Source: Chloracidobacterium thermophilum B | Lineage (GTDB): Bacteria > Acidobacteriota > Blastocatellia > Chloracidobacteriales > Chloracidobacteriaceae | Direction of reading: 5' to 3' | NCBI RefSeq assembly: GCF_000226295.1 | Contig: NC_016025.1 | Coordinates: 1-64,000, forward strand | Length of the DNA: 64,000 bases | Shown here: piece after piece, positions 7,521-30,155 of the stretch | Numbering within the stretch: position 1 is the first letter of the stretch | How the letters are laid out: each line of letters opens with the position of its first letter | Made by a program: the position numbers and the translations under genes | The notes under the pieces: model-generated | Database searches by the model: none | Told to the model about the DNA's origin: nothing | The model's input: only the letters and a program-made list of their open reading frames with translations

Positions 7521-15016
<7,496 letters not shown>

Positions 15017-17281: not shown

Positions 17282-17312
17282 CAAAAAAGAAGCGCGCCGA
17301 CCGAGGGCGCGC
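17282..17312 (-). terminator. Rho-independent terminator of the small-protein operon
   Basis: Read on the minus strand, GCGCGCC-CTCGGTC-GGCGCGC forms a perfect 7-bp GC stem with a 7-nt loop. It is followed at once by TTCTTTTTTG. It lies 57 bases past the stop of the last minus-strand gene, ending the TPR/small-protein transcript. Confidence 0.85.
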
Positions 17313-17368
17313 CGCGTTCTGCTATGTGGTGGGACTGCCGACAGAGAACCAGCAGTGGGCTGCCAAAA

Positions 17369-17776
17369 CTACATCGCCAGTTGCGCCTGCTTGACCTTGT
17401 CGGCGACAGCATCGCGTCCCGTCACCGCATCCATCAGCGTCTTGAGAGCTTCGTTGAACTTCGTCAGCGCCGTGGAAATCTTCTGCAGCCGCTCGGCAAA
17501 ACTCTGCAACCGCTGAGCGAAGCTGCTGAGACCGCCGGCTGCCCGATCAAGGAAGTCTGTCGCACGTCCAAAGGGCCCGAGCGGGGGATTCTTGGCGATG
17601 TTGGTATTGTTGCCGCTGAGCAGCGAAGTTCCAATCCGTTGTACGAGGCTGGCCAACGCACCCTTGACGCCATTGCTCAAGAGGGAGGTGGCCAAGCCTT
17701 TGACCGCATTCATCGCAATACCCTTCAGCATCGGAAGGGCAACTTTCGCAAGACCAGCAAGTACCGGAAGTGGCAT
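17369..17776 (-). CDS. Small helical protein, N-module only (putative T3SS substrate)
   Basis: A 135-residue protein, not recognisable as a named family. It is hydrophobic and Gly/Ala-rich for the first about 55 residues. Then comes the motif NIAKNPPLGPFG (about 59-70) and a long amphipathic helix (about 75-120; SFAQRLQSFAERLQKISTALTKFNEALKT split over adjacent heptads). The whole protein aligns with the first about 140 residues of the 234-residue neighbour, including the NIAKNPPLGPFG block and the KFNEALKTLMDA(V/I)TGR tail. It has no signal peptide and a strong AGGAGG ribosome site. It is last in a four-gene minus-strand operon headed by a TPR protein and divergent from sctD/sctV. A secreted T3SS component is inferred from context. 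Confidence 0.55.
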   Translation of the reverse strand: MPLPVLAGLAKVALPMLKGIAMNAVKGLATSLLSNGVKGALASLVQRIGTSLLSGNNTNIAKNPPLGPFGRATDFLDRAAGGLSSFAQRLQSFAERLQKISTALTKFNEALKTLMDAVTGRDAVADKVKQAQLAM

Positions 17777-17810
17777 GATGGAATCCTCCTAAGAAGTGTG
17801 TGCGGTGTGC

Positions 17811-18515
17811 CTACCGCAGGTTGTTGAGCGCCTGCATCACGGCGTCATTCATGGCTTTCTGCAGGTTTGACTTTGCCAGGCCAGCCTGCGTAATCGCATC
17901 TTTGATCTGCTGAAGGGCAAATTGATATTCCTGCATCTTCTGCTGATAGCGCAAACGTTCTTCGTCGGAGGCATTCGGACCCGGCATCTGCGGCTTTTCC
18001 GGCAGGCCGAACTCATTGCTGGTGGCACGCGGCATCACCGCCGTGGAAGGTGTGGCAGAGGAAGCCGGTGGCCCGGTTGCGGCCGGTTGCCCCGTCGAAG
18101 GTGCGGAAACTTGCGCCTGCTTGACCTTGTCCTCAACCGCTGTACGCCCGGTGATGGCGTCCATCAGCGTCTTGAGGGCTTCGTTGAACTTCGTCAACGC
18201 TGAGGAAATGTTCTGGAGGCGCTGGCTAAACTGCTGAAGCCGCTGCGCGAAATCACTGAGACCTTTCGCCGTGCGATCAAGAAAATTGCTTACCTGACCA
18301 AAGGGGCCAAGCGGCGGATTCTTGGCGATGTTGAGGTTGCCGCCCCGGAGGAAGGAACTGCTGATGCGCTGAACCAGGTTGGTGAGTGCGTTACCAATGC
18401 CTCCCCCACGGAGAAACGAGGTGGCGATACCCAGCAGCGGATTGCTGCCGGCGACAGTTCTGAGAATCGGTACGGCCACGCGGGCAATACCACCGAGTAT
18501 CTTTCCTAACGGCAT
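17811..18515 (-). CDS. Two-module helical protein (putative T3SS substrate)
   Basis: A 234-residue protein made of two modules. Residues about 1-140 match the 135-residue downstream neighbour (shared NIAKNPPLGPFG, AQRLQ.F.QRLQ repeats, TKFNEALKTLMDAITGR). Residues about 168-234 match the 69-residue upstream protein (shared FGLP.KP.MPGPNASD, RL.YQQ.MQ.YQFALQQ, KSNLQKA..DA.MQ..NNLR). A Ser/Thr/Pro/Ala linker (about 140-167) joins them. It thus looks like a fusion of its two neighbours, or they are its split duplicates. It has no signal peptide and a good GGGAGG ribosome site. No known family was recognised. The coiled, Ala/Gln-rich modules and the context beside a class-II-chaperone-like TPR protein and sctV suggest an exported structural or translocator protein. 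Confidence 0.55.
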   Translation of the reverse strand: MPLGKILGGIARVAVPILRTVAGSNPLLGIATSFLRGGGIGNALTNLVQRISSSFLRGGNLNIAKNPPLGPFGQVSNFLDRTAKGLSDFAQRLQQFSQRLQNISSALTKFNEALKTLMDAITGRTAVEDKVKQAQVSAPSTGQPAATGPPASSATPSTAVMPRATSNEFGLPEKPQMPGPNASDEERLRYQQKMQEYQFALQQIKDAITQAGLAKSNLQKAMNDAVMQALNNLR

Positions 18516-18566
18516 GACGAGCCTCCCTTCATAAATCAGGCCCGGGCGTGACCCAGGCCCGCAGGT

Positions 18567-18776
18567 TTAGCGCAGGTTGTTGATCATCTGCATAATGGCA
18601 TCGTGAGCTGCCTTCTGCAGGTTCGACTTCGTCACACCTTCCTGCGTGATGGCGTTGACCGCCTGCTGGAGGGCAAACTGGTAGTTCTGCATGTCCTGCT
18701 GATACTTGAGACGTTCAACGTCTGAAGCATTGGGACCGGGCATCACTGGCTTTGGTGGAAGACCGAAGTTCGACAT
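18567..18776 (-). CDS. 69-aa protein resembling T3SS needle subunit (SctF-like)
   Basis: A 69-residue protein with a Pro-rich start (FGLPPKPVMPGPNASD) and two predicted helices. The segment RLKYQQDMQNYQFALQQ followed by a Gly turn and KSNLQKAAHDAIMQMINNLR resembles the C-terminal half of needle proteins MxiH/PrgI (AEYQSKLSEYxLYRNAQ ... KDxDAAIIQNFR) in spacing and in its terminal Asn-x-Arg. Typical SctF proteins are about 80 residues, so size also fits. The similarity is by eye and short. The same sequence is fused to the C-terminus of the 234-residue downstream protein. It is preceded by the TPR chaperone-like gene in the same operon, the usual chaperone-before-substrate order. Confidence 0.5.
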   Translation of the reverse strand: MSNFGLPPKPVMPGPNASDVERLKYQQDMQNYQFALQQAVNAITQEGVTKSNLQKAAHDAIMQMINNLR

Positions 18777-18824: not shown

Positions 18825-19283
18825 TTACTGAATGCTGTCGCCGCCCTGCTCGGCAGCTTCCTGCACAATCTGGTGAATGCCCAGCGCAATGGCGCGGGCG
18901 CGATTGGCACCGGGGTCCTTTTCTTCGGGGTCGAGGTCAATGGCGCGTTGCAAATCAGCGATGGCTTCTTCATAACGCTCCATGCGCAGAAAGACCTCGG
19001 CGCGGTTGACGTAAGGGGCAATCATCTGCGGGTCAAGGGCAATCGCCCGTTCCAGGCTGGCGAGTGCCAACTCATCTTCCTGCGTTCGGGTGTAAAGCGC
19101 ACCCAGTGCGGCGTGGGCCGCAGCACTGTTGGGATCGACTTCCACCAGTCCCTCGAAAATCGTGCGGGCGCGCTTCAGGTCGCCTTGTTCATAGTACATG
19201 GCACCGATTTCGCCCATGCGTTGGAAGTCTTCATCGGTAATGCCGAGTTGCTGGCGTGGCGTTTCGTTTCCGTTGGCACTCAT
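18825..19283 (-). CDS. TPR protein, LcrH/SycD-like class II T3SS chaperone candidate
   Basis: A 153-residue protein with three to four tetratricopeptide repeats (about 20-125; YYEQGDLKRARTIFEGLVEVDP, LGALYTRTQEDELALASLERAIALDP, RAEVFLRMERYEEAIADLQRAIDLDP). Size and repeat number match class II chaperones of T3SS translocators (SycD/LcrH/IpgC) and the needle co-chaperone type. The ATG at 19283 has AGGAG nine bases upstream and was preferred over two earlier in-frame ATGs (19316 and 19379). It heads a minus-strand operon of small helical proteins and is divergent from sctD/sctV. TPR identity is certain; the chaperone role is inferred from size and location. Confidence 0.65.
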   Translation of the reverse strand: MSANGNETPRQQLGITDEDFQRMGEIGAMYYEQGDLKRARTIFEGLVEVDPNSAAAHAALGALYTRTQEDELALASLERAIALDPQMIAPYVNRAEVFLRMERYEEAIADLQRAIDLDPEEKDPGANRARAIALGIHQIVQEAAEQGGDSIQ

Positions 19284-19396
19284 CGGGAGGGTCTCCTGTA
19301 CGTTCTCTGTGGTCATCGGATTCGGACGCAACCGTGAAGCCGTTTCCGCTTGCACTCTCGTTATCGAAGCGGGCGTCACAGTGTTGCGTCCAAAGC

Positions 19397-19599: not shown

Positions 19600-20853
19600 A
19601 TGGAAGTCAAACTCATCGTGCGTGAGGTGGGTGCGCCACCTGCTGCCAAACCGCTGCTGGAAGACATCTGGCGCACGAGTGTCATCAGTGTGGGAAGCAG
19701 CCCCCAGGCCACCCTGCGGCTGACCGGCCTGGGGATTGCCGCCGAACACGTGATCATCTTTGAGGAAAACGGGCACATCATCTTCGTCAACCATGGTGAC
19801 GGCACACGCCTCAACGGCCTGCCGGTCCGCATCGGCGACCGGCGGCCGCTGACCTTTGGCGACCGGATACACATCGGCAACTACGTCATCACGGTGCTCG
19901 ACGGCAACTCCCCGGCGGCCCGACTTGATGACCCCCGGGCCACGAGCCTGCTCCAGGCAGCCACCCGTGAACTGTTCACGAGTGGACTGAAGTTCGACCT
20001 TGACAGCCTGCTGCCGGCGGCATTTCGCCCTTCCAGCCCGCGCAAGTCGCTGGAGATTCCCGAAAACGCCAGTTTTGCACAGATACTCGAAGCCCTGGTC
20101 GCGCCAGAGGACAGTTTCCGCTTCGTCATCGAGGGGGGCTACCAGCCGAACGTCTCCCTGCCGCTGCCGGCCGGGGATGCCGAAGTCCCGCTGGGATGGG
20201 AGGCTTCGGGCCTGCGCATCACGATCAACCAGCAGGAACTGGTGACGTACTGCGCACTTGTCCGCAAGACCGGAGAGCGGGTTGTGTTGCATCCGGTTCT
20301 ACCCGACCATCGCCTGACGGTCAATGACGAGCCGGTGACGGAGCCACGGGTCCTCGTTGACCGCGACCGCATCCGGTTTGCCTCGCCACTGACCCGTCCG
20401 CTGGAGCGGCCCCTGCCGACGCTCGTCTTCCGTACGCCGTCCACCCTGTCCATGCTGACCGAAGCCGTGGCCACGGCACCGCTGCGGCCAACGGAGCCAC
20501 TTTTGAATGGAACGCTGGCTGCTCCCGAACCTGCTGCCGGCCCATTGGAGGTGGATGATGTTCCCTTGCGCCAGGTGATGGAAATGCCGGCTGTGACCGA
20601 AGCGGACATCCGTTCCGTGGCGCCTGAATCGCCGCCATCGGCGTCACTGTCATCGGCGGCTGCGCCCGATGCGCCGGCTGTGTCGTCCGAGGTCTCATCC
20701 GGCGCGTCCCCGGCAACCGGCGGCACAGCGTCGGCAACGGGAGCCGTGACGTACTATTATCTGGGCTATTTCACCGGCATTGAACTGGCGGTCATGGCTG
20801 TGGGGACGCTTCTGGGGGCGCTGCTCGTCTATGTGCTTCTTGAAACGCTCTAG
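19600..20853 (+). CDS. FHA-domain tail-anchored protein, SctD-like
   Basis: A 417-residue protein. Residues about 1-100 form an FHA-type fold (ISVGSSPQATLRL; AAEHVIIF; GDGTRLNG; LTFGDRIHIGNYVI). A second FHA-like domain may lie around 190-275 (LRITINQQELVTYCALVRKTG ... LTVNDEPV ... DRIRFA). An acidic, Ser/Ala/Pro-rich linker follows, then one membrane segment near the C-terminus (about 390-414) with almost nothing after it. SctD, the inner-membrane ring protein of injectisomes, starts with a cytosolic FHA domain and one membrane helix but continues into a periplasmic region, which is absent here. It has a GGAGGAG ribosome site and sits 72 bp upstream of sctV. SctD-like by context; a dedicated FHA adaptor is the alternative. 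Confidence 0.55.
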   Translation: MEVKLIVREVGAPPAAKPLLEDIWRTSVISVGSSPQATLRLTGLGIAAEHVIIFEENGHIIFVNHGDGTRLNGLPVRIGDRRPLTFGDRIHIGNYVITVLDGNSPAARLDDPRATSLLQAATRELFTSGLKFDLDSLLPAAFRPSSPRKSLEIPENASFAQILEALVAPEDSFRFVIEGGYQPNVSLPLPAGDAEVPLGWEASGLRITINQQELVTYCALVRKTGERVVLHPVLPDHRLTVNDEPVTEPRVLVDRDRIRFASPLTRPLERPLPTLVFRTPSTLSMLTEAVATAPLRPTEPLLNGTLAAPEPAAGPLEVDDVPLRQVMEMPAVTEADIRSVAPESPPSASLSSAAAPDAPAVSSEVSSGASPATGGTASATGAVTYYYLGYFTGIELAVMAVGTLLGALLVYVLLETL

Positions 20854-20925
20854 GCCGGCGACGCTGTGTGTTGCCCGGTTTGTCCAAACGCTTCTGATTT
20901 GACGGTGACTGGTGCGGAGAAAGCT

Positions 20926-23073
20926 ATGACTTCCCTGACTGACCAGGTGAAAAGCTTCAGCGGCATTGACTTTGCCGCGGCCCTCTCGAAAAACAGCGAC
21001 ATGCTCATTGCGGCCGGAATGATTGTGCTCATCGGCACGATCATCGTGCCCGTGCCGACCTTCATCCTCTCCATCCTCATCGTGGTCAACATCACCATTT
21101 CACTCGCGGTGATGATGGTGTCGCTCTACATTTCGAGTCCGTTGCAGCTTTCGACCTACCCAACCATCCTGCTGTTGACGACGCTGTTCCGGCTGGCGCT
21201 GAGCATTTCCTGTACGCGCAGCATCCTGACAAAGGGCGACGCCGGCGATGTCATCCGGGCGCTGGGAGAAATCACGGCCCAGGGCAACCTTGTCGTCGGG
21301 TTCGTGATGTTCATCATCCTGCTGGTCGTCCAGTTTCTGGTCGTGGCCAAAGGCGCTGAGCGCGTCGCCGAAGTGGCGGCCCGGTTTACCCTCGATGCGC
21401 TGCCCGGCAAGCAGATGGCCATTGACGCCGATATGCGGTCTGGCCTCATCACGATGGATGTCGCCAAAAAGCTGCGCTCGGACCTGGCGAAGGAATCCCG
21501 GCTGTACGGCGCGATGGACGGGGCGATGAAGTTCGTCAAGGGCGACTCCATCGCCACCATCATCATTGCCGTTGTCAACATCGTGGCGGGGATGACGATT
21601 GGGGTGCTGTACAAGGGGCTTTCTCCGGCTGTGGCAGCGAAGAAGTACCTCATCCTGACCATTGGCGATGGTCTCGGTGCCATTTTCGCCTCGATCTTCA
21701 TCGCCATTTCAGCCGGTCTGGTGGTGACGCGCGTTGCTGGCGACGATACGGACGAAAGCAGCAACGTCGGCGCGGATATGAGCGCCCAGATGCTGGCCAA
21801 TCCCAAGCCGCTGCTCGTGGTTTCGGGGCTGTTGGGTTCGCTGGCTGTCGTGGCGGTACTGGCCGGGAGCGTCGTCGCCCTGCCGGTGCTCATCGTGGCG
21901 GCCGTGGTGGCCCCGTTGGCGTTCAGTCTGCGCAAACGCCAGCAGGCGTTGGCGGCGCAGGCGGCCGAGAAGAAAGGGCCGGCAGCGGAGGCTTCCGAAA
22001 GTGACGACATCCAGCCGTCCTACACCGTCCCGATGGCGATTGTGACGAGCGCCGAGCTGGCGCCCTACATTGACCCGGAGTTTCCGGCCGGCGCGAAGTT
22101 CCGCGAAGGACTGACGGCGCTGCGCAACACGATGTACTACGACACCGGCGTGCTCATGCCGCAGATTTACGTCACCGGCAACGCCCCGCTCGAACCCTTC
22201 CACTATGTGTTTGCCGTCAAGGAAGTACCCGTGGCGCAGGGCGTCGTCAAACCGTTTCACTTCTACGTCAACGATTCGGTGGAGAACATCCGGGTGTTTG
22301 GCATTGAGGGCGAGGAAGTGCGCAACCCGGCCGATTTGCGTCCCGGCGCGTGGGTGCCAGATGAGTACCGCCTGCTGGCAGCCGTGGCTGGTCTCAAAAT
22401 CTGGGAGCCAAGCGACTTTCTGCTGCTCCATATCTCGAACATTCTGCGCCGCCACGCGCACGAATATGTGGGCATCCAGGAAGCGCAGGCGCTGCTGGAT
22501 TTCGTCGGGCGCGGCGCACCGAAGCTGGTGGAGGAAGTCGTCCCGAAGATTGTCTCGCTGCACCTGTTTACGGATGTCCTGCAGCGCCTCGTGCAGGAAG
22601 GCGTCTCGATCCGGGATGTGAAGTCCATTCTCGATGCACTGGCGGAGTGGGGACGCATCGAGAAAGACCCGGCGCAACTGACCGAATACGTGCGCGCCTC
22701 GATGAAGCGGGTCATTTCCTTCAAGGCTTCCGGCGGACGCGGGACGCTGTTTGTCTATCTGCTTGACCCGGAAATTGAGGACATCGTACGCGGCTCGATC
22801 CGGCGCACCTCGACTTCGGCCTTTCTGGCGCTTGACCCGACCATCAGCAACGACATCCTGGCGGCGCTGCGGGCGGAAATCGGCGAGTTGCCGCCCACGG
22901 CGCAGAAGCCTGTCATCGTGACGGATATGGACATCCGGCGGTTCGTCCGCAAGCTCGTGGAAGTGGAGTTTCCGAATGTCTCGGTGCTTTCCTACCAGGA
23001 ATTGTCGCCGGATTTGACCATCCAGCCCATTGCCCGGATTGCCCTGCCGCACGGCGGGCGACTGGCGGCCTAG
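20926..23073 (+). CDS. sctV: Non-flagellar type III secretion export gate protein SctV
   Basis: A 715-residue FlhA/SctV (FHIPEP) family protein, the nonameric inner-membrane export gate. The first about 330 residues hold roughly eight membrane helices, with the family signature ARFTLDALPGKQMAIDADM at about 152-170. The segment SRLYGAMDGAMKFVKGD (about 191-207) matches injectisome SctV (YGSMDGAMKFVKGD) better than flagellar FlhA (YGAMDGASKFVRGD). So does FRLALSISCTRSIL (about 88-101). The cytosolic domain spans about 365-715. The ATG at 20926 has GGAG seven bases upstream; an earlier in-frame ATG (20866) lacks one. It is co-directional with the FHA gene and ends at an intrinsic terminator. No other export-gate gene (sctRSTU) is in the window. 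Confidence 0.93.
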   Translation: MTSLTDQVKSFSGIDFAAALSKNSDMLIAAGMIVLIGTIIVPVPTFILSILIVVNITISLAVMMVSLYISSPLQLSTYPTILLLTTLFRLALSISCTRSILTKGDAGDVIRALGEITAQGNLVVGFVMFIILLVVQFLVVAKGAERVAEVAARFTLDALPGKQMAIDADMRSGLITMDVAKKLRSDLAKESRLYGAMDGAMKFVKGDSIATIIIAVVNIVAGMTIGVLYKGLSPAVAAKKYLILTIGDGLGAIFASIFIAISAGLVVTRVAGDDTDESSNVGADMSAQMLANPKPLLVVSGLLGSLAVVAVLAGSVVALPVLIVAAVVAPLAFSLRKRQQALAAQAAEKKGPAAEASESDDIQPSYTVPMAIVTSAELAPYIDPEFPAGAKFREGLTALRNTMYYDTGVLMPQIYVTGNAPLEPFHYVFAVKEVPVAQGVVKPFHFYVNDSVENIRVFGIEGEEVRNPADLRPGAWVPDEYRLLAAVAGLKIWEPSDFLLLHISNILRRHAHEYVGIQEAQALLDFVGRGAPKLVEEVVPKIVSLHLFTDVLQRLVQEGVSIRDVKSILDALAEWGRIEKDPAQLTEYVRASMKRVISFKASGGRGTLFVYLLDPEIEDIVRGSIRRTSTSAFLALDPTISNDILAALRAEIGELPPTAQKPVIVTDMDIRRFVRKLVEVEFPNVSVLSYQELSPDLTIQPIARIALPHGGRLAA

Positions 23074-23256: not shown

Positions 23257-23285
23257 TTGCCGTATAGTACGCGATAGTGTATAAT
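23257..23285 (+). promoter_or_regulatory. Sigma-70-type promoter of the IS607 transposase
   Basis: TTGCCG (23257-23262), a 17-bp spacer, then TATAAT (23280-23285). The predicted transcription start falls at about 23291-23293, on or next to the ATG at 23293, so the message may be leaderless. This is the only near-consensus promoter noticed in the window. Confidence 0.7.
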
Positions 23286-23292
23286 GGTGCTC

Positions 23293-23937
23293 ATGGAAAA
23301 CACCATGAGCACAGGTAAAGCCGCAAAACTCCTTGGTGTCTCGGTCAAGACGTTGCAGCGTTGGGAACGCGAAGGAAGGCTGATTCCGGTGGCCCGAACG
23401 GACAGCAACCGCCGCCTCTACACTGAGACGCAGATCCGTGAGTTCATCGGTTTGCGGCAGGCCAACCATGCGCCAACAAAGCTTGTCGCCTACTGTCGGG
23501 TATCGAGTGCGGCGCAGAAGCCGGACCTGGCGAATCAGCGCAAAGTGCTGGAAGAGTTCGTGGTGGCGAAGGGATTGGCGGGGGTCGAGTTTATCGAGGA
23601 AGTGGGCAGCGGGCTGGACTTCAGGCGCAAGCGGTTTCTGGCCCTTATGGACGAGATCGGGCGACGGGAAGTCAGGATGCTGATCCTCGCTCACCGGGAC
23701 CGCCTCACCCGTTTCGGCTTTGAGTGGTTTGAACATTACGCCCAAACCCATGGCTGCGAAGTGCTGGTACTCAACCAGGAACGGCTGTCTCCCGAACAGG
23801 AAATGGTGCGGGACTTGATGACCATCGTGCGCTGTTTTTCGTCCCGGCTGTACGGTTTGAGGAACTATCGAAAGAAGTTGAATGAAGCGCTGAAACAGGA
23901 TGTAAATGACGTCAAAAAGGCCCAACAATGCAACTGA
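23293..23937 (+). CDS. tnpA: IS607-family serine recombinase transposase
   Basis: A 214-residue protein. An N-terminal MerR-type helix-turn-helix (STGKAAKLLGVSVKTLQRWE, about 6-25) binds DNA. It is followed by a small serine recombinase domain. The nucleophile is Ser71 in AYCRVSSAAQ (66-75), with the conserved arginines in HRDRLTRFG (about 138-146) and a C-terminal helical tail. The N-terminal DNA-binding domain ahead of the catalytic domain is the diagnostic IS607 order. ATG 23293 lies just after the -10 box; ATG 23305 is an alternative, and an ATG at 23284 overlaps the -10 box and is unlikely. It overlaps tnpB by 10 bases. Confidence 0.92.
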   Translation: MENTMSTGKAAKLLGVSVKTLQRWEREGRLIPVARTDSNRRLYTETQIREFIGLRQANHAPTKLVAYCRVSSAAQKPDLANQRKVLEEFVVAKGLAGVEFIEEVGSGLDFRRKRFLALMDEIGRREVRMLILAHRDRLTRFGFEWFEHYAQTHGCEVLVLNQERLSPEQEMVRDLMTIVRCFSSRLYGLRNYRKKLNEALKQDVNDVKKAQQCN

Positions 23938-25268
23938 CACACAAGACCGCTCTTTGTCCGACTCCTGAGCAGGTGGACTACTTCAAGCGCGCCTGCGGCA
24001 CGGCGCGGCGTGTTTGGAACTGGGCGCTCAATGAGTGGAACAGGCAATACGCAGCAGGCGGCAGGCCAAACGCCATGGCGCTCAAAGAACAGTTCAACGC
24101 CATCAAGTACACCGACCCGCAGTGGCTCGATGAGAACGGTCGGCCTTGGTTGCAAGACATTCACCGGGATGCCCACGCCCAGCCGTTTGCCCATCTCGCC
24201 AAAGCCTGGGAAAGATTCTTCACCGACCTCAAGGCTGGCAAAGAGGCACACGCACCGCGCTTCAAGAAAAAGGGGCGCTGCCGCGACAGCTTTTACGTAG
24301 CCAACGACAAGTTCCGTCTGGTCGGTAAGACGATCCGCCTACCCAAGATCGGTGAAGTCGCCATGACCAAGGAGCTGCGCTTCGCGGGCAGGATTTTGGG
24401 CGCAACGGTTTCTCGCACCGCGGATCGTTGGTTTGTGGCCATACAGGTCGAGGTGCCTGATGCGCAATTCTATCGGCGTCGCACGTCGCACGAGGTCAAC
24501 GGCATCGACCTAGGCATCAAGGCTGCCGCAACGATCTCCAGCGGTGAAGTCATCGAGGTGCCAAAGCCGCTCAAAGCAGCGCTGCGCCGTCTGGAAATCC
24601 GTAGCCGACGTCTCAGCCGCAAGCTGGAAGCCGCCAAGAAGGCAGCAGGATTTGAACGCCATGCCCGCCTGCCTAAAGGAACGCGCCTGCCGGTATCGAA
24701 CAACCGGCAGAAGTCCGCTGCGATATTGGCAAGGCTCTATGCCCGCATTGCCAATATCCGAGCGGATTTCACCCACAAGCTCACGACTCGACTCTGCCGC
24801 GAAAACCAAGCGTTAGTGATCGAGGATTTAAACGTCAAAGGGATGCTGGAGAACGAGAAACTCGCCCGCGCCATCTCTGACGTGGGTTTTGGGATGTTGC
24901 GCTCGCAGTTGGAATACAAGGCCCGGCGCTACGGTACTCAGCTTACCATCGCTGATCGCTGGTATCCAGGCAGCCGACTGTGCTCCATCTGTGGCTGGAA
25001 GAACGAGGCGCTGACATTGAGAGATCGAACATGGGTGTGTGCTCAATGTGGTGCGCACCATGACCGTGACCTCAATGCGGCGCTGAACCTGAAACGGCTG
25101 GCAACCGAAACTGCCCTACCCGTGGCGAGTCCGTCCAGCAATGGCGGCGCTGCGGCGGGGACCGTCCCCGCCGTAGTCGGGAAAGTCACGCCTGTCAGAT
25201 ACGACGGTGGTCAACAGGACACGTCGGGGCAGGAAGAGAACCGTGCGCACTTTTGCGCACATTCTTGA
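23928..25268 (+). CDS. tnpB: TnpB, RNA-guided nuclease of IS607/IS605 elements
   Basis: A 446-residue TnpB, the ancestor-type of Cas12 nucleases, which uses an omega RNA made from the element's 3' end to cut target DNA. It has an N-terminal helix-turn-helix/OrfB region and a RuvC fold with all three acidic residues visible: Asp194 in NGIDLGIK, Glu299 in VIEDLNVKGM, Asp381 in HHDRDLNAALNL. A four-cysteine zinc ribbon (Cys352, 355, 371, 374) sits between the second and third. The C-terminal tail ending SGQEENRAHFCAHS is typical of this group and probably overlaps the omega-RNA scaffold. Its start is translationally coupled to tnpA. Full length and apparently intact. Confidence 0.93.
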   Translation: MQLTHKTALCPTPEQVDYFKRACGTARRVWNWALNEWNRQYAAGGRPNAMALKEQFNAIKYTDPQWLDENGRPWLQDIHRDAHAQPFAHLAKAWERFFTDLKAGKEAHAPRFKKKGRCRDSFYVANDKFRLVGKTIRLPKIGEVAMTKELRFAGRILGATVSRTADRWFVAIQVEVPDAQFYRRRTSHEVNGIDLGIKAAATISSGEVIEVPKPLKAALRRLEIRSRRLSRKLEAAKKAAGFERHARLPKGTRLPVSNNRQKSAAILARLYARIANIRADFTHKLTTRLCRENQALVIEDLNVKGMLENEKLARAISDVGFGMLRSQLEYKARRYGTQLTIADRWYPGSRLCSICGWKNEALTLRDRTWVCAQCGAHHDRDLNAALNLKRLATETALPVASPSSNGGAAAGTVPAVVGKVTPVRYDGGQQDTSGQEENRAHFCAHS

Positions 25269-28487: not shown

Positions 28488-29480
28488 ATGGGAAATCCCA
28501 CCGACTGGTTACTGGCACTGGCGCTGGCGTATGAGCGCAACACCGCACAGCAGCCCATTCCGCCTTCCGAACTGTTCGCGCTTCTGCCAGCAGAGGCGCA
28601 GCAACGCCTGACTTCCCGTCAGCAGGAAATAAGCGCGCAGGATGACGCCACGGTGACGGCCTGGCTGGCGCAGACGCTCGACGGTTTGCGGCAACGGGTG
28701 CGGCAGCGGTCGCCAGCGCTTGATGAACGGGTCCATCCGTCGCACATCGCGGCGGCGCTGCGCCATGAGCCGCTCTACATTCAGCGGCTGTTGCTGGCGT
28801 CGTTGCCGGCTGCCATTGGAACGGCCGTGGCGCGCGCGCTCCGCCAGAGCCAGATACGTCTCAATATGGATGACCTTGCCCCCGTAGCCCCGGTGCTCAA
28901 TGCCATCCGCCAGCGTTTCCTGAGCCAGTTTGTGAGCGCCGACCAGATTGCGCCGCTGACGGTGTTTGACGAACTGACCGAAGCTGAGTTGTACCGGGTG
29001 GCGCACGCCATGGGAGTTGCCGAGGTGGCGCTGGCCAGCTATGACCTGCCCACGACCGAGGCGGTTACGGCGCTGCTGCGGCGCTTTCCTGAAGCTGAGG
29101 CCCGCGCCATCGCCGAACAGATTGCGGCGCTGCGCGTCCGCCCCCGGCCGCCAGCGGCCGCGCGGCGGGAGTTTGCGCGCCAGCTCGTACGGACCGCCAT
29201 GACCGCTCACAAACGCGACCCCGAACTGGTGATGACGCTGGGCTGGCAGGTCATCATGGTGGCGCTGCCGGCCGCCGGTGATGCCAACCGCCTGGCCTTT
29301 ACCTTTCAGAAGCTGCCGCCGAAGCTCGTCCGGCGCCTGCAGGAGTGGCTCGACGCCCCACCGGCCGCCGCGCGCCCGGAGCTGCAAAAACAACTGTTTG
29401 AGGACGTTTTGCGCTGGGCGCAACATCATCGTAACCAATCTATGCCCGACTTGTCGGGTGCAGCCGTCGTGCTCAAATAG
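28488..29480 (+). CDS. Uncharacterised 330-aa helical protein in the sctL operon
   Basis: An Ala/Leu/Arg-rich, almost wholly helical cytosolic protein without signal peptide or membrane segment, not recognised as a named family. A region at about 80-115 (HPSHIAAALRHEPLYIQRLLLASLP) faintly recalls FliG-middle-domain wording, and repeated short helical hairpins suggest a scaffold. Its position immediately upstream of sctL, with 27 bp between, is where cytosolic sorting-platform proteins such as SctK or SctQ often sit. A SctK-like role is a context guess only. The start has GGAG about ten bases upstream. Confidence 0.45.
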   Translation: MGNPTDWLLALALAYERNTAQQPIPPSELFALLPAEAQQRLTSRQQEISAQDDATVTAWLAQTLDGLRQRVRQRSPALDERVHPSHIAAALRHEPLYIQRLLLASLPAAIGTAVARALRQSQIRLNMDDLAPVAPVLNAIRQRFLSQFVSADQIAPLTVFDELTEAELYRVAHAMGVAEVALASYDLPTTEAVTALLRRFPEAEARAIAEQIAALRVRPRPPAAARREFARQLVRTAMTAHKRDPELVMTLGWQVIMVALPAAGDANRLAFTFQKLPPKLVRRLQEWLDAPPAAARPELQKQLFEDVLRWAQHHRNQSMPDLSGAAVVLK

Positions 29481-29507
29481 CGCCCGTCGGTCCGGCCCAC
29501 GTTGTCT

Positions 29508-30155
29508 ATGCTCGTCGTCAAGCCATCTGTCACCGACCTGCTCCCGCTCACCGGAGGGATCGTCAAACGCGCCGTCGTCGAGGCCCGCGCCGAGGCCCGG
29601 CGGCTTGTGCGTGAGGCACAGGCTGAAGCCAACCGCCGCATTGCCGAAGCCCAGGCCGAAGTGGAGCGGATTCGTACGGAAGCCTGGAAGGCCGGTTACG
29701 AAGCCGGACTGGCGGAGTTCACCACGCGCCTGCTTGACCTTCAGCGCCGCCGCGAGGCGCTGCTCAACGATGCCGAGCAGGAAGTGCTGCGCCTGGCGCT
29801 GCGCATTGCCGAGAAAATCATCGGGCGGGAGCTGGAAGTCCAGGAAACAACCCTGCTGGACATTGTCCGCACGGCGATGCGCAACCTCCGCCAGGCCAGT
29901 ACCGTCACCATCTGCGTCAACCCGGCTGATGTGCCCCGGCTTGAACGGCACCGCGAAGCGATTGAAACCCTCCGGCGGGGACAGTTTGTCAACATCGTTC
30001 CCGATACCCGCGTGTCGGTGGGGGGCTGCATCCTGGAAAGCGAATCCGGTATTGTGGATGCCCAACTCGACACCCAACTGCGCGTCATCGAGCAGGCATT
30101 GCTCGAAATGCATGCCACGCAGCGGCGTGAGGCGCGCCAAAGCTCACCTGAATGA
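29508..30155 (+). CDS. sctL: Type III secretion stator protein SctL (FliH/YscL family)
   Basis: A 215-residue protein. It has an N-terminal Ala/Glu/Arg coiled coil with AExR heptads (about 20-60), then WKAGYEAGLAEF (about 63-74) and a central helix (EQEVLRLALRIAEKIIGRELE). The conserved C-terminal FliH/HrpE domain runs ICVNPADVPRL ... VNIVPDTRVSVGGCILESESG ... DAQLDTQL (about 135-200). SctL tethers the SctN ATPase to the sorting platform. The ATG at 29508 was chosen; TTG two codons earlier is possible. Its stop overlaps the next gene's ATG (ATGA). The GGC.LES..G.VDA block is clear, so family membership is firm. Injectisome rather than flagellar assignment follows from sctV. Confidence 0.85.
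   Translation: MLVVKPSVTDLLPLTGGIVKRAVVEARAEARRLVREAQAEANRRIAEAQAEVERIRTEAWKAGYEAGLAEFTTRLLDLQRRREALLNDAEQEVLRLALRIAEKIIGRELEVQETTLLDIVRTAMRNLRQASTVTICVNPADVPRLERHREAIETLRRGQFVNIVPDTRVSVGGCILESESGIVDAQLDTQLRVIEQALLEMHATQRREARQSSPE

What the first reader, a model, noticed from the sequence alone, without database searches (positions are those of the whole stretch)
17369..18776. Three neighbouring proteins built from two shared modules
The 135-aa protein equals the N-terminal module and the 69-aa protein equals the C-terminal module of the 234-aa protein between them. Blocks such as NIAKNPPLGPFG and MPGPNASD are near-identical between copies. Each gene has its own strong ribosome site. They are encoded with a TPR chaperone-like gene and face sctD-sctV. 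This fits a new family of exported structural proteins, with a long form able to cap or bridge two short forms.
Basis: partly seen in the sequence, partly recalled or inferred. Interest (0 to 1): 0.82.

Follow-up and report, generated by a model that had tools for sequence, protein, structure and literature searches.

The report
Split and fused secretion-needle proteins
A bacterium related to hot-spring phototrophs carries, beside its type III secretion genes, a protein resembling the syringe needle, a small greasy partner protein and a fused version of the two, which suggests that the partner works on or at the tip of the needle.

Summary
The 135-aa and 234-aa proteins share an N-module (64% identity over 137 columns); the 69-aa and 234-aa proteins share a C-module (74% over 66). 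The three genes are kept in order in 6 of 7 genus genomes under purifying selection (dN/dS 0.01-0.15). The C-module is not a new family: profile comparison links it (96.3%, E 1.9e-9; controls 1.4% and 0.04%) to domains of other phylum members that match or approach Pfam's needle family PF09392. The N-module matches no family in the libraries searched. Its profile-supported relatives are separate small hydrophobic proteins in two genomes of the same class, encoded beside an orthologous TPR chaperone and a short needle-like gene. So 234 fuses two parts that elsewhere are separate neighbours. In 11 of 15 SctV-positive genomes I saw two needle-domain genes, each beside its own type of TPR gene; this cassette is the more LcrH-like pair. 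Best reading: a needle-anchored, translocator-like tip component. Secretion, assembly and membrane activity are inferred.

The parts
17369..17776 (-). 135-aa protein: N-module alone (moderately hydrophobic, amphipathic)
   Evidence: 81-93% identical orthologues in 5 other genus genomes
17811..18515 (-). 234-aa protein: N-module + linker + needle-like C-module
   Evidence: 79-94% identical orthologues in 5 other genus genomes
18105..18515 (-). N-module of the 234-aa protein (residues 1-137)
   Evidence: homologous to stand-alone proteins of G329 and G019 (hhalign 92.3%, E 5.5e-7)
18012..18104 (-). Pro/Ser/Thr-rich linker of the 234-aa protein (residues 138-168)
   Evidence: sequence; absent from the 135- and 69-aa proteins
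17814..18011 (-). needle-like C-module of the 234-aa protein (residues 169-234)
18567..18776 (-). 69-aa protein: C-module alone, needle (SctF)-like
   Evidence: AF2 single helix 19-68, mean pLDDT 71; no direct Pfam hit
18825..19379 (-). TPR chaperone gene; GTG ORF of 184 aa, in-frame ATG at 19283 (152 aa) is where the orthologous ORFs of G002, G003 and G005 start; LcrH/SycD-like
   Evidence: TIGR02552 71.8 bits, below the 104.8 cut-off; ORF starts; orthologue 57% identical in G329; chaperone tree
17570..17587 (-). PPLGPF block in the 135-aa protein, candidate chaperone-docking hexapeptide
   Evidence: motif definition from PMC3443056 (passages); position 6 fitted after looking
18300..18317 (-). 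PPLGPF block in the 234-aa protein
17291..17313 (-). terminator-like hairpin after the TPR-69-234-135 run
   Evidence: 5 such sites in the 3-kb region, 3.8 expected by shuffling
19600..20853 (+). FHA-domain protein, SctD-like, divergent from the cassette
   Evidence: PF00498 E 1e-9; PF16697 20.0 bits, below its 33.2 cut-off
20866..23073 (+). SctV export gate
   Evidence: TIGR01399 715.8 bits, cut-off 692.25; PF00771
26359..27012 (-). second LcrH-like TPR gene; its likely orthologues in G329 and G019 lie near SctI
   Evidence: 54.9 bits, below cut-off
28488..29480 (+). 330-aa protein in the SctK position (between SctJ and SctL in G329)
   Evidence: no family hit of its own
29502..30155 (+). SctL stator
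   Evidence: TIGR02499 93.8 bits over the 78.7 cut-off

Best explanation
The run TPR-69-234-135 encodes an extracellular needle/tip component of the host's type III secretion system together with its cytosolic chaperone. Shown: two modules, shared as described; the C-module goes with the needle family by profile; the N-module is an unnamed small hydrophobic protein that in two relatives is separate and encoded beside an orthologous chaperone and a short needle-like gene; the run is conserved with SctV. Inferred: the LcrH-like TPR protein holds the N-module in the cytosol, perhaps at the PPLGPF block; all three are exported through SctV/SctU; the 69-aa protein packs like a needle subunit; the 234-aa protein enters the same helical lattice by its C-module, most likely at or near the tip, and displays its N-module there; free 135-aa copies join it and together act on a target membrane. 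It would work like a translocon physically tied to the needle.
For: Module sharing. C-module to needle domains of other phylum members: hhalign 96.3%, E 1.9e-9; controls SctI 1.4% and SctO 0.04%. Those domains match PF09392 over cut-off in 4 of 17 genomes, clearly so in G072 (40.1 bits on the ORF). A joint profile finds 12 PDB sequences at E<=10, of which 8 are MxiH or PrgI chains (E 0.14-1.2) and the first is 7y6c_F (2.5e-4) from a T3SS needle-chaperone entry. The needle HMM finds none of 4278 reversed ORFs at E<=10. N-module to stand-alone neighbours: 92.3%, E 5.5e-7; controls 0.07% and 0.2%. Orthologous TPR gene (57% identical in G329) in that neighbourhood. Two chaperone clades (95/95) follow the two kinds of neighbouring needle gene; both pairs seen in 11 of 15 SctV-positive genomes. 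SctI is a separate gene in 7 of 7 genus genomes. Triple and SctV are absent together in G006.
Against: The three window proteins themselves match no needle model (E<=10); the Chloracidobacterium-type profile A4 alone finds 0 PDB sequences, and A5 also picks up an unrelated human helical domain (22 chains, E 0.0025-0.021) ahead of MxiH (0.43). The 69-aa protein has no first needle helix in the model and a Pro-rich start. The N-module is less hydrophobic than a usual membrane helix (best 19-residue mean 1.36 and 1.54) and its AF2 model is unusable (pLDDT 46). LcrH scores of the chaperones are all below the family cut-off, and two of the 'LcrH-like' set score higher with a non-T3SS TPR model. N-parts of other long needle proteins are not demonstrably related. 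The needle-domain tree does not separate the two kinds. The PPLGPF motif does not extend to the other long proteins beyond chance. No secretin lies in the T3SS stretches read.
Confidence: 0.55

Rival explanations
1. The 69-aa protein is simply the major needle subunit and the 234-aa and 135-aa proteins are assembly helpers: the N-module is a chaperone-binding or secretion-control segment (an SctX-like adaptor to SctV) with no extracellular role.
For: Cassette lies beside SctV; TPR184 also matches the SctY chaperone model (38.7 bits, cut-off 70); in the Ysc system SctX:SctY binds SctV (PMC9163089, passages).
Against: No SctX-type family hit for the N-module at E<=10. A second needle-domain gene (121 aa) is present in 7 of 7 genus genomes, followed in all seven by an orthologous TPR gene and SctU; its TPR is of the other chaperone clade, and it fits the major needle at least as well. 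G006 keeps that pair and lacks the cassette.
Confidence: 0.2
2. The 234-aa protein is an inner-rod or rod-to-needle adaptor (SctI role), bridging the export gate and the needle.
For: A fused needle module plus an extra N-terminal part resembles the idea of an adaptor; encoded next to SctV.
Against: A separate SctI gene (E about 1e-24) exists in 7 of 7 genus genomes; the C-module profile does not match SctI (1.4%), nor does the N-module (0.2%).
Confidence: 0.08
3. The proteins form a surface or periplasmic filament exported by another route (Sec); the needle-like tail is a general C-terminal assembly helix in this phylum.
For: Needle-like tails, most ending N-x-[RK], occur in 13 of 396 genomes without SctV over the cut-off; 6 of the 10 inspected carry a Sec-looking leader by eye, two of them only from a downstream start.
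Against: Window proteins show no clear Sec leader by eye (hydrophobic start interrupted by Lys/Arg); adjacency to SctV and a T3SS-type chaperone; N-module strong only in SctV-positive genomes; joint absence with SctV in G006.
Confidence: 0.1
4. Recent duplication debris: 69 and 135 are partial copies of 234 without distinct roles.
For: Complementary partial copies lie on either side of 234.
Against: All three kept in 6 of 7 genomes with dN/dS 0.01-0.15 at dS 0.2-1.4; own ribosome sites; stand-alone forms of both modules exist in two relatives, so the free forms need not be fragments of a fusion.
Confidence: 0.04

Closest known systems
T3SS needle filament subunit SctF (PF09392; TIGR02105; MxiH, PrgI, YscF, SsaG)
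   Same: C-terminal helix pattern (Q and N columns invariant, K and M nearly so in 17 rows, most ending N-x-[RK]); profile-profile link; MxiH and PrgI chains among the PDB hits of the joint profile; 69 aa against a 71-position model; T3SS neighbours.
   Different: No direct curated hit; Pro-rich start instead of a first helix; a duplicate is fused to a hydrophobic module; the chaperone beside it is of the more LcrH-like clade.
Class II T3SS chaperones with hydrophobic translocators (LcrH/SycD with YopB/YopD)
   Same: Small hydrophobic T3SS-linked protein encoded beside an LcrH-like TPR gene; the block PPLGPF/PPLGGF/PPVGGF fits hydrophobic positions 1, 3 and 6 of the class II docking hexapeptide (PMC3443056, passages).
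   Different: No sequence relation to any translocator family in Pfam or NCBIfam; moderate hydrophobicity; fused to a needle module in one copy. I identified no separate tip or translocator gene, but did not search for one.
Chlamydial CdsF/CdsG needle and chaperone with FHA-domain CdsD (recalled, except the CdsG model hit)
   Same: FHA-domain SctD-like protein beside SctV; the TPR beside the other needle gene matches the CdsG model (32.9 bits, E 6.2e-8, below its 170 cut-off) as well as LcrH (32.5 bits).
   Different: That describes the 121-aa pair outside the window, not the cassette here.
Long proteins with a C-terminal needle domain in other phylum members (163-475 aa; G062, G072, G081, G105, G120, G237)
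   Same: Needle domain at the very C-terminus and a hydrophobic or Gly-rich N-part; a TPR gene of the LcrH-like set next door in 4 of these 6 (G062, G081, G105, G120).
   Different: N-parts are not demonstrably related to the window's N-module (1.2%, tested with G062, G105, G093, G067 and G237), so the architecture is shared, not shown homology.

Membership tests
SctF needle subunit | curated family hit (PF09392 / TIGR02105) on the window proteins | tested here: not met
   no needle family at E<=10; the G072 relative does hit (40.1 bits, cut-off 29.4)
SctF needle subunit | homology by profile-profile comparison | tested here: met
   96.3%, E 1.9e-9; controls 1.4% and 0.04%
SctF needle subunit | two-helix hairpin with long C-terminal helix | tested here: inconclusive
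   AF2: one helix 19-68, start not helical, mean pLDDT 71
SctF needle subunit | encoded with a non-flagellar T3SS export apparatus | tested here: met
   SctV over the hrcV cut-off; SctU, SctR, SctS and SctT elsewhere on the same contig
SctF needle subunit | polymerises into a hollow needle | not testable with these tools
   -
T3SS hydrophobic translocator (SctE/SctB) | sequence membership of a translocator family | tested here: not met
   none for the N-module proteins scanned
T3SS hydrophobic translocator (SctE/SctB) | predicted membrane helix or helices | tested here: inconclusive
   best 19-residue Kyte-Doolittle mean 1.36 (234) and 1.54 (135); no membrane-helix predictor available
T3SS hydrophobic translocator (SctE/SctB) | cognate class II TPR chaperone | tested here: inconclusive
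   TIGR02552 71.8 bits against a 104.8 cut-off; its clade is separate from the other TPR set, 95/95
T3SS hydrophobic translocator (SctE/SctB) | chaperone-docking hexapeptide | tested here: inconclusive
   present in all N-module proteins examined (6 genus copies each of 135 and 234, and 3 of G329/G019), but position 6 is F rather than P and the pattern was widened after looking
SctI inner rod | only rod gene of the system, SctI profile | tested here: not met
   separate SctI in 7 of 7 genus genomes; hhalign 1.4% and 0.2%
SctX/SctY | SctX family hit on the N-module | tested here: not met
   no SctX-type family at E<=10; TPR184 against the SctY model 38.7 bits, cut-off 70
Sec-exported filament protein | Sec signal peptide | tested here: inconclusive
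   by eye none; hydrophobic start interrupted by K/R; no signal-peptide predictor available

The most novel reading that the evidence does not exclude
T3SS of Acidobacteriota carry a second kind of needle protein, with its own LcrH-like chaperone, that serves as a needle-anchored translocon in place of separate tip and translocator proteins: usually one polypeptide with a hydrophobic N-part and a needle C-part; split into separate genes in some Blastocatellia; and in Chloracidobacterium present as both halves and the whole.
Probability: 0.35. Interest if true: 0.85.

Novelty: new variant of a known kind. Interest (0 to 1): 0.6.

Why it matters
How an injectisome needle is joined to its membrane pore is an open structural problem (my assessment), and needle, tip and translocon proteins evolve quickly and are hard to trace (PMC3459982, passages). 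A natural gene set with needle module, hydrophobic module and their fusion offers a direct handle: the fusion says which two parts meet. It also places a non-flagellar T3SS with unusual needle parts in a phylum where the survey of Abby and Rocha 2012 listed none (PMC3459982, passages), in a genus whose species C. thermophilum is an anoxygenic phototroph from a hot spring (PMC4791109, passages). What such a system is aimed at is unknown.

Tried and rejected
Direct Pfam, NCBIfam and PHROGs scans of the three window proteins gave no T3SS family. phmmer of the 69-aa protein against PDB gave 'PPa' miniproteins first (E 0.0075; that these are designed polyproline-helix proteins is partly recalled), read as the Pro-rich start. 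The N-module profile against PDB gave coiled-coil entries that look designed. Profile A5 against PDB also hit an unrelated human helical domain. Relating the N-module to the N-parts of other long needle proteins failed; the 234-aa protein has a weak full-length match to a 199-aa protein of another family of the same order (G010, E 1.4e-4), but the N-part is not borne out by profile (0.8%). A tree of 31 needle domains was unresolved (53 columns): the window's 69 and 234C group together (96/77) but the two kinds of needle gene do not separate. AF2 of the 234-aa protein was too poor (pLDDT 46), and no fold search was run. The chaperone hexapeptide idea holds only for the N-module family and was fitted after looking. 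phmmer of TPR184 against PDB gave generic TPR proteins. Inner-rod and Sec readings were set aside (rivals). Literature: the rows listed (some lists capped) show no title that treats a Chloracidobacterium or Acidobacteriota injectisome or a fused needle protein; I saw passages of four papers only (PMC3459982, PMC9163089, PMC3443056, PMC4791109), and subscription papers are mostly not held.

Dropped rows and limits: the needle profile matched 33 of 396 genomes: the 15 with SctV over the cut-off; 5 more with T3SS-like surroundings or partial SctV (G017 669 bits, just below the cut-off; G116 a truncated match; G109 a fragment; G085 and G097 no FHIPEP match); and 13 others (G118, G124, G154, G211, G214, G217, G218, G255, G303, G318, G390, G395, G417). 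Of the 13 I inspected proteins for 10 (not G124, G211, G417). In one search (E<=1e-100) only G255 of the 13 has a match, below the cut-off; FHIPEP at E<=1e-10 was sought in G217, G218, G303 (none) and G255 (848.7 bits). No other T3SS gene was searched for in the 13. Chaperone sets in the tree were assigned before building it, by neighbouring needle gene and with the scores already seen; TPR217 was put in by similarity. LcrH scores are 50-72 bits in the 11 of 13 first-set proteins scanned and at most 47.5 in the 9 of 9 of the other set; the latter are called SctG/CdsG-like by relation and place, since in five of the nine LcrH still scores as high as CdsG or nearly so or higher. In 4 of the 15 SctV-positive genomes I did not see both needle-chaperone pairs: G067 has only the long one (its TPR gene is there), and in G072, G120 and G237 one needle gene has no TPR gene in the stretch read.

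Full report
Observation. The three ORFs lie at the stated coordinates on the - strand. The 135-aa protein aligns with residues 1-137 of the 234-aa protein at 64% identity (E 3e-58), the 69-aa protein with residues 169-234 at 74% (E 5e-34), and the two short ones do not align with each other. A Pro/Ser/Thr-rich linker of about 31 residues in the 234-aa protein belongs to neither. The gene order is TPR-69-234-135 with gaps of 48, 51 and 34 nt and a terminator-like hairpin after the last gene. The run faces an FHA-domain SctD-like gene and SctV. Among 7 genus genomes, 6 hold the triple in this order; dN/dS of the three genes against five relatives is 0.01-0.15. So these are real, selected genes.

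Organism. The window is the start of the second contig (1,012,010 bases) of a 3,695,372-base genome. A named-genome scan found the long protein in two Chloracidobacterium MAGs and one MAG named only as Blastocatellia; their contig lengths equal those of G001, G002 and G003, which are of the window's genus. No call names the window's own record; by size I recall Chloracidobacterium thermophilum B. The phylum, Acidobacteriota, follows from the genus name.

The secretion system. SctV is over the hrcV cut-off and SctL over its cut-off. SctU, SctR, SctS and SctT are found elsewhere on the same contig. SctI is a separate gene in 7 of 7 genus genomes. Two secretins occur in each of four genomes searched, none of them in the T3SS stretches I read. 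The genus member G006 has no SctV match and no triple but has SctR, S, T and U.

What the C-module is. The window proteins match no needle model directly. A PF09392 search of 17 genomes found needle domains over the cut-off in 4 (G072, G093, G105, G067), each at the C-terminus of a 163-273-aa protein. On whole ORFs, G072 scores 40.1 bits and the other three 28.5-29.3 against a cut-off of 29.4, just below. Profile comparison of the Chloracidobacterium-type modules (A4, 10 rows) with these and related domains (A5, 7 rows) gives 96.3% and E 1.9e-9; the same query gives 1.4% with SctI and 0.04% with SctO. A joint profile (A3, 17 rows) finds 12 PDB sequences at E<=10: 7y6c_F at 2.5e-4 (deposited under a needle co-chaperone name; I take it to be the needle fragment of that complex), 8 MxiH or PrgI sequences at 0.14-1.2, and 3 unrelated ones. 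A5 alone also hits an unrelated human domain ahead of MxiH, and A4 alone finds nothing. An HMM of A3 hits 0 of 4278 reversed ORFs at E<=10.

What the N-module is. It matches no Pfam, NCBIfam or PHROGs family convincingly. In two other genomes of the class the orthologue of the TPR gene (57% identical in G329) lies between a short needle-like gene (72 and 83 aa) and one or two small hydrophobic proteins (149; 135 and 165 aa) that carry the block PPLGGF or PPVGGF. These are homologous to the N-module by profile (92.3%, E 5.5e-7; controls 0.07% and 0.2%). Thus the two modules are separate neighbours there, and both separate and fused here. A phylum search with this profile gives E<1e-40 in 5 of 396 genomes, all SctV-positive, and nothing better than 1.5e-3 elsewhere. 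The profile was built from sequences of four of those five genomes, so the absences carry the weight.

Two needle genes, two chaperones. SctV over cut-off occurs in 15 of 396 phylum genomes; the needle-module profile hits 33 of 396, including all 15. Reading the neighbourhoods shows two sorts of needle-domain gene: a shorter one (78-162 aa; 50 aa as called in G237) beside one sort of TPR gene, in several genomes next to SctI-SctJ; and another beside a more LcrH-like TPR gene, mostly 163-475 aa with a hydrophobic or Gly-rich N-part, but 69-83 aa in Chloracidobacterium, G329 and G019. A tree of 22 of these TPR proteins splits them into those two sets with 95/95 support. LcrH scores are 50-72 bits in the 11 of 13 first-set proteins scanned and at most 47.5 in the 9 of the other set; none reaches the 104.8 cut-off. 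Both pairs were seen in 11 of the 15 SctV-positive genomes: G000, G004, G005, G010, G011, G019, G062, G081, G093, G105, G329. In the genus the first pair is a 121-aa protein in 7 of 7 genomes, followed by its TPR gene and SctU in all seven; the window cassette is the second pair.

How it most likely works. Established elsewhere: class II TPR chaperones hold hydrophobic translocators, and SctF is held by a heterodimer with one TPR protein (PMC9163089, passages). From this and the anatomy I infer that TPR184 guards the N-module, that all three proteins are exported, and that the C-module docks the N-module onto the needle, probably at its end. The free 69-aa protein could build the docking layer and the free 135-aa protein could enlarge the membrane-active part. 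[quoted passage not shown] This fit was made after looking and does not extend to other long proteins (2 of 11 carry the pattern, as chance allows).

Against. The N-module is only moderately hydrophobic, its fold is unknown, the chaperone score is below the family cut-off, and needle-like tails occur in 13 genomes without SctV over the cut-off, several in proteins with Sec-looking leaders. The last point means that the C-terminal helix pattern alone is not proof of T3SS export.

Verdict. A real, conserved, lineage-specific rearrangement of a T3SS needle-type module and a hydrophobic partner module; a new variant of a known kind, with an N-module family that has no name in the libraries searched.

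Noticed in passing
L169:2346-2801, L170:1400-1855, L146:1060-1662, L153:1498-1824: Proteins with a Sec-looking leader (by eye; in L146 only from a downstream start) that end in a needle-like helix, in genomes with no SctV match at E<=1e-100; E 1.5e-7 to 4e-10 with the needle HMM.
   Followed up: partly
G006 (L033, L221): A 99%-complete genus member that keeps SctR, S, T, U and the 121-aa needle pair but has no SctV (FHIPEP) match and no cassette: perhaps a partly lost secretion system.
   Followed up: partly
window 23284-25268: IS607-family resolvase gene and a 446-aa TnpB-like gene (by eye) downstream of SctV; a near copy of the pair lies near the second T3SS locus of G004 (L035:16447-18428).
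   Followed up: no
G000, G006, G329, G019: Two secretins per genome, none in the T3SS stretches read: the system may borrow a secretin or lack one; Myxococcales systems are reported to lack a secretin (PMC3459982, passages).
   Followed up: no
L089:2866-4293 (G081): A 475-aa protein with long Gly-Leu-Ile repeats and a needle-like C-terminus, followed by two TPR genes of the LcrH-like set.
   Followed up: partly
L110:403-1704 (G017): A 433-aa protein with repeated QGGGAQ-type units and a needle-like C-terminus, in a genome whose SctV scores just below the hrcV cut-off.
   Followed up: no
window 9221-15016: Very large ORF on the - strand (1931 aa), beyond the 652-aa + strand ORF that lies on the cassette's 3' side; not studied.
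   Followed up: no
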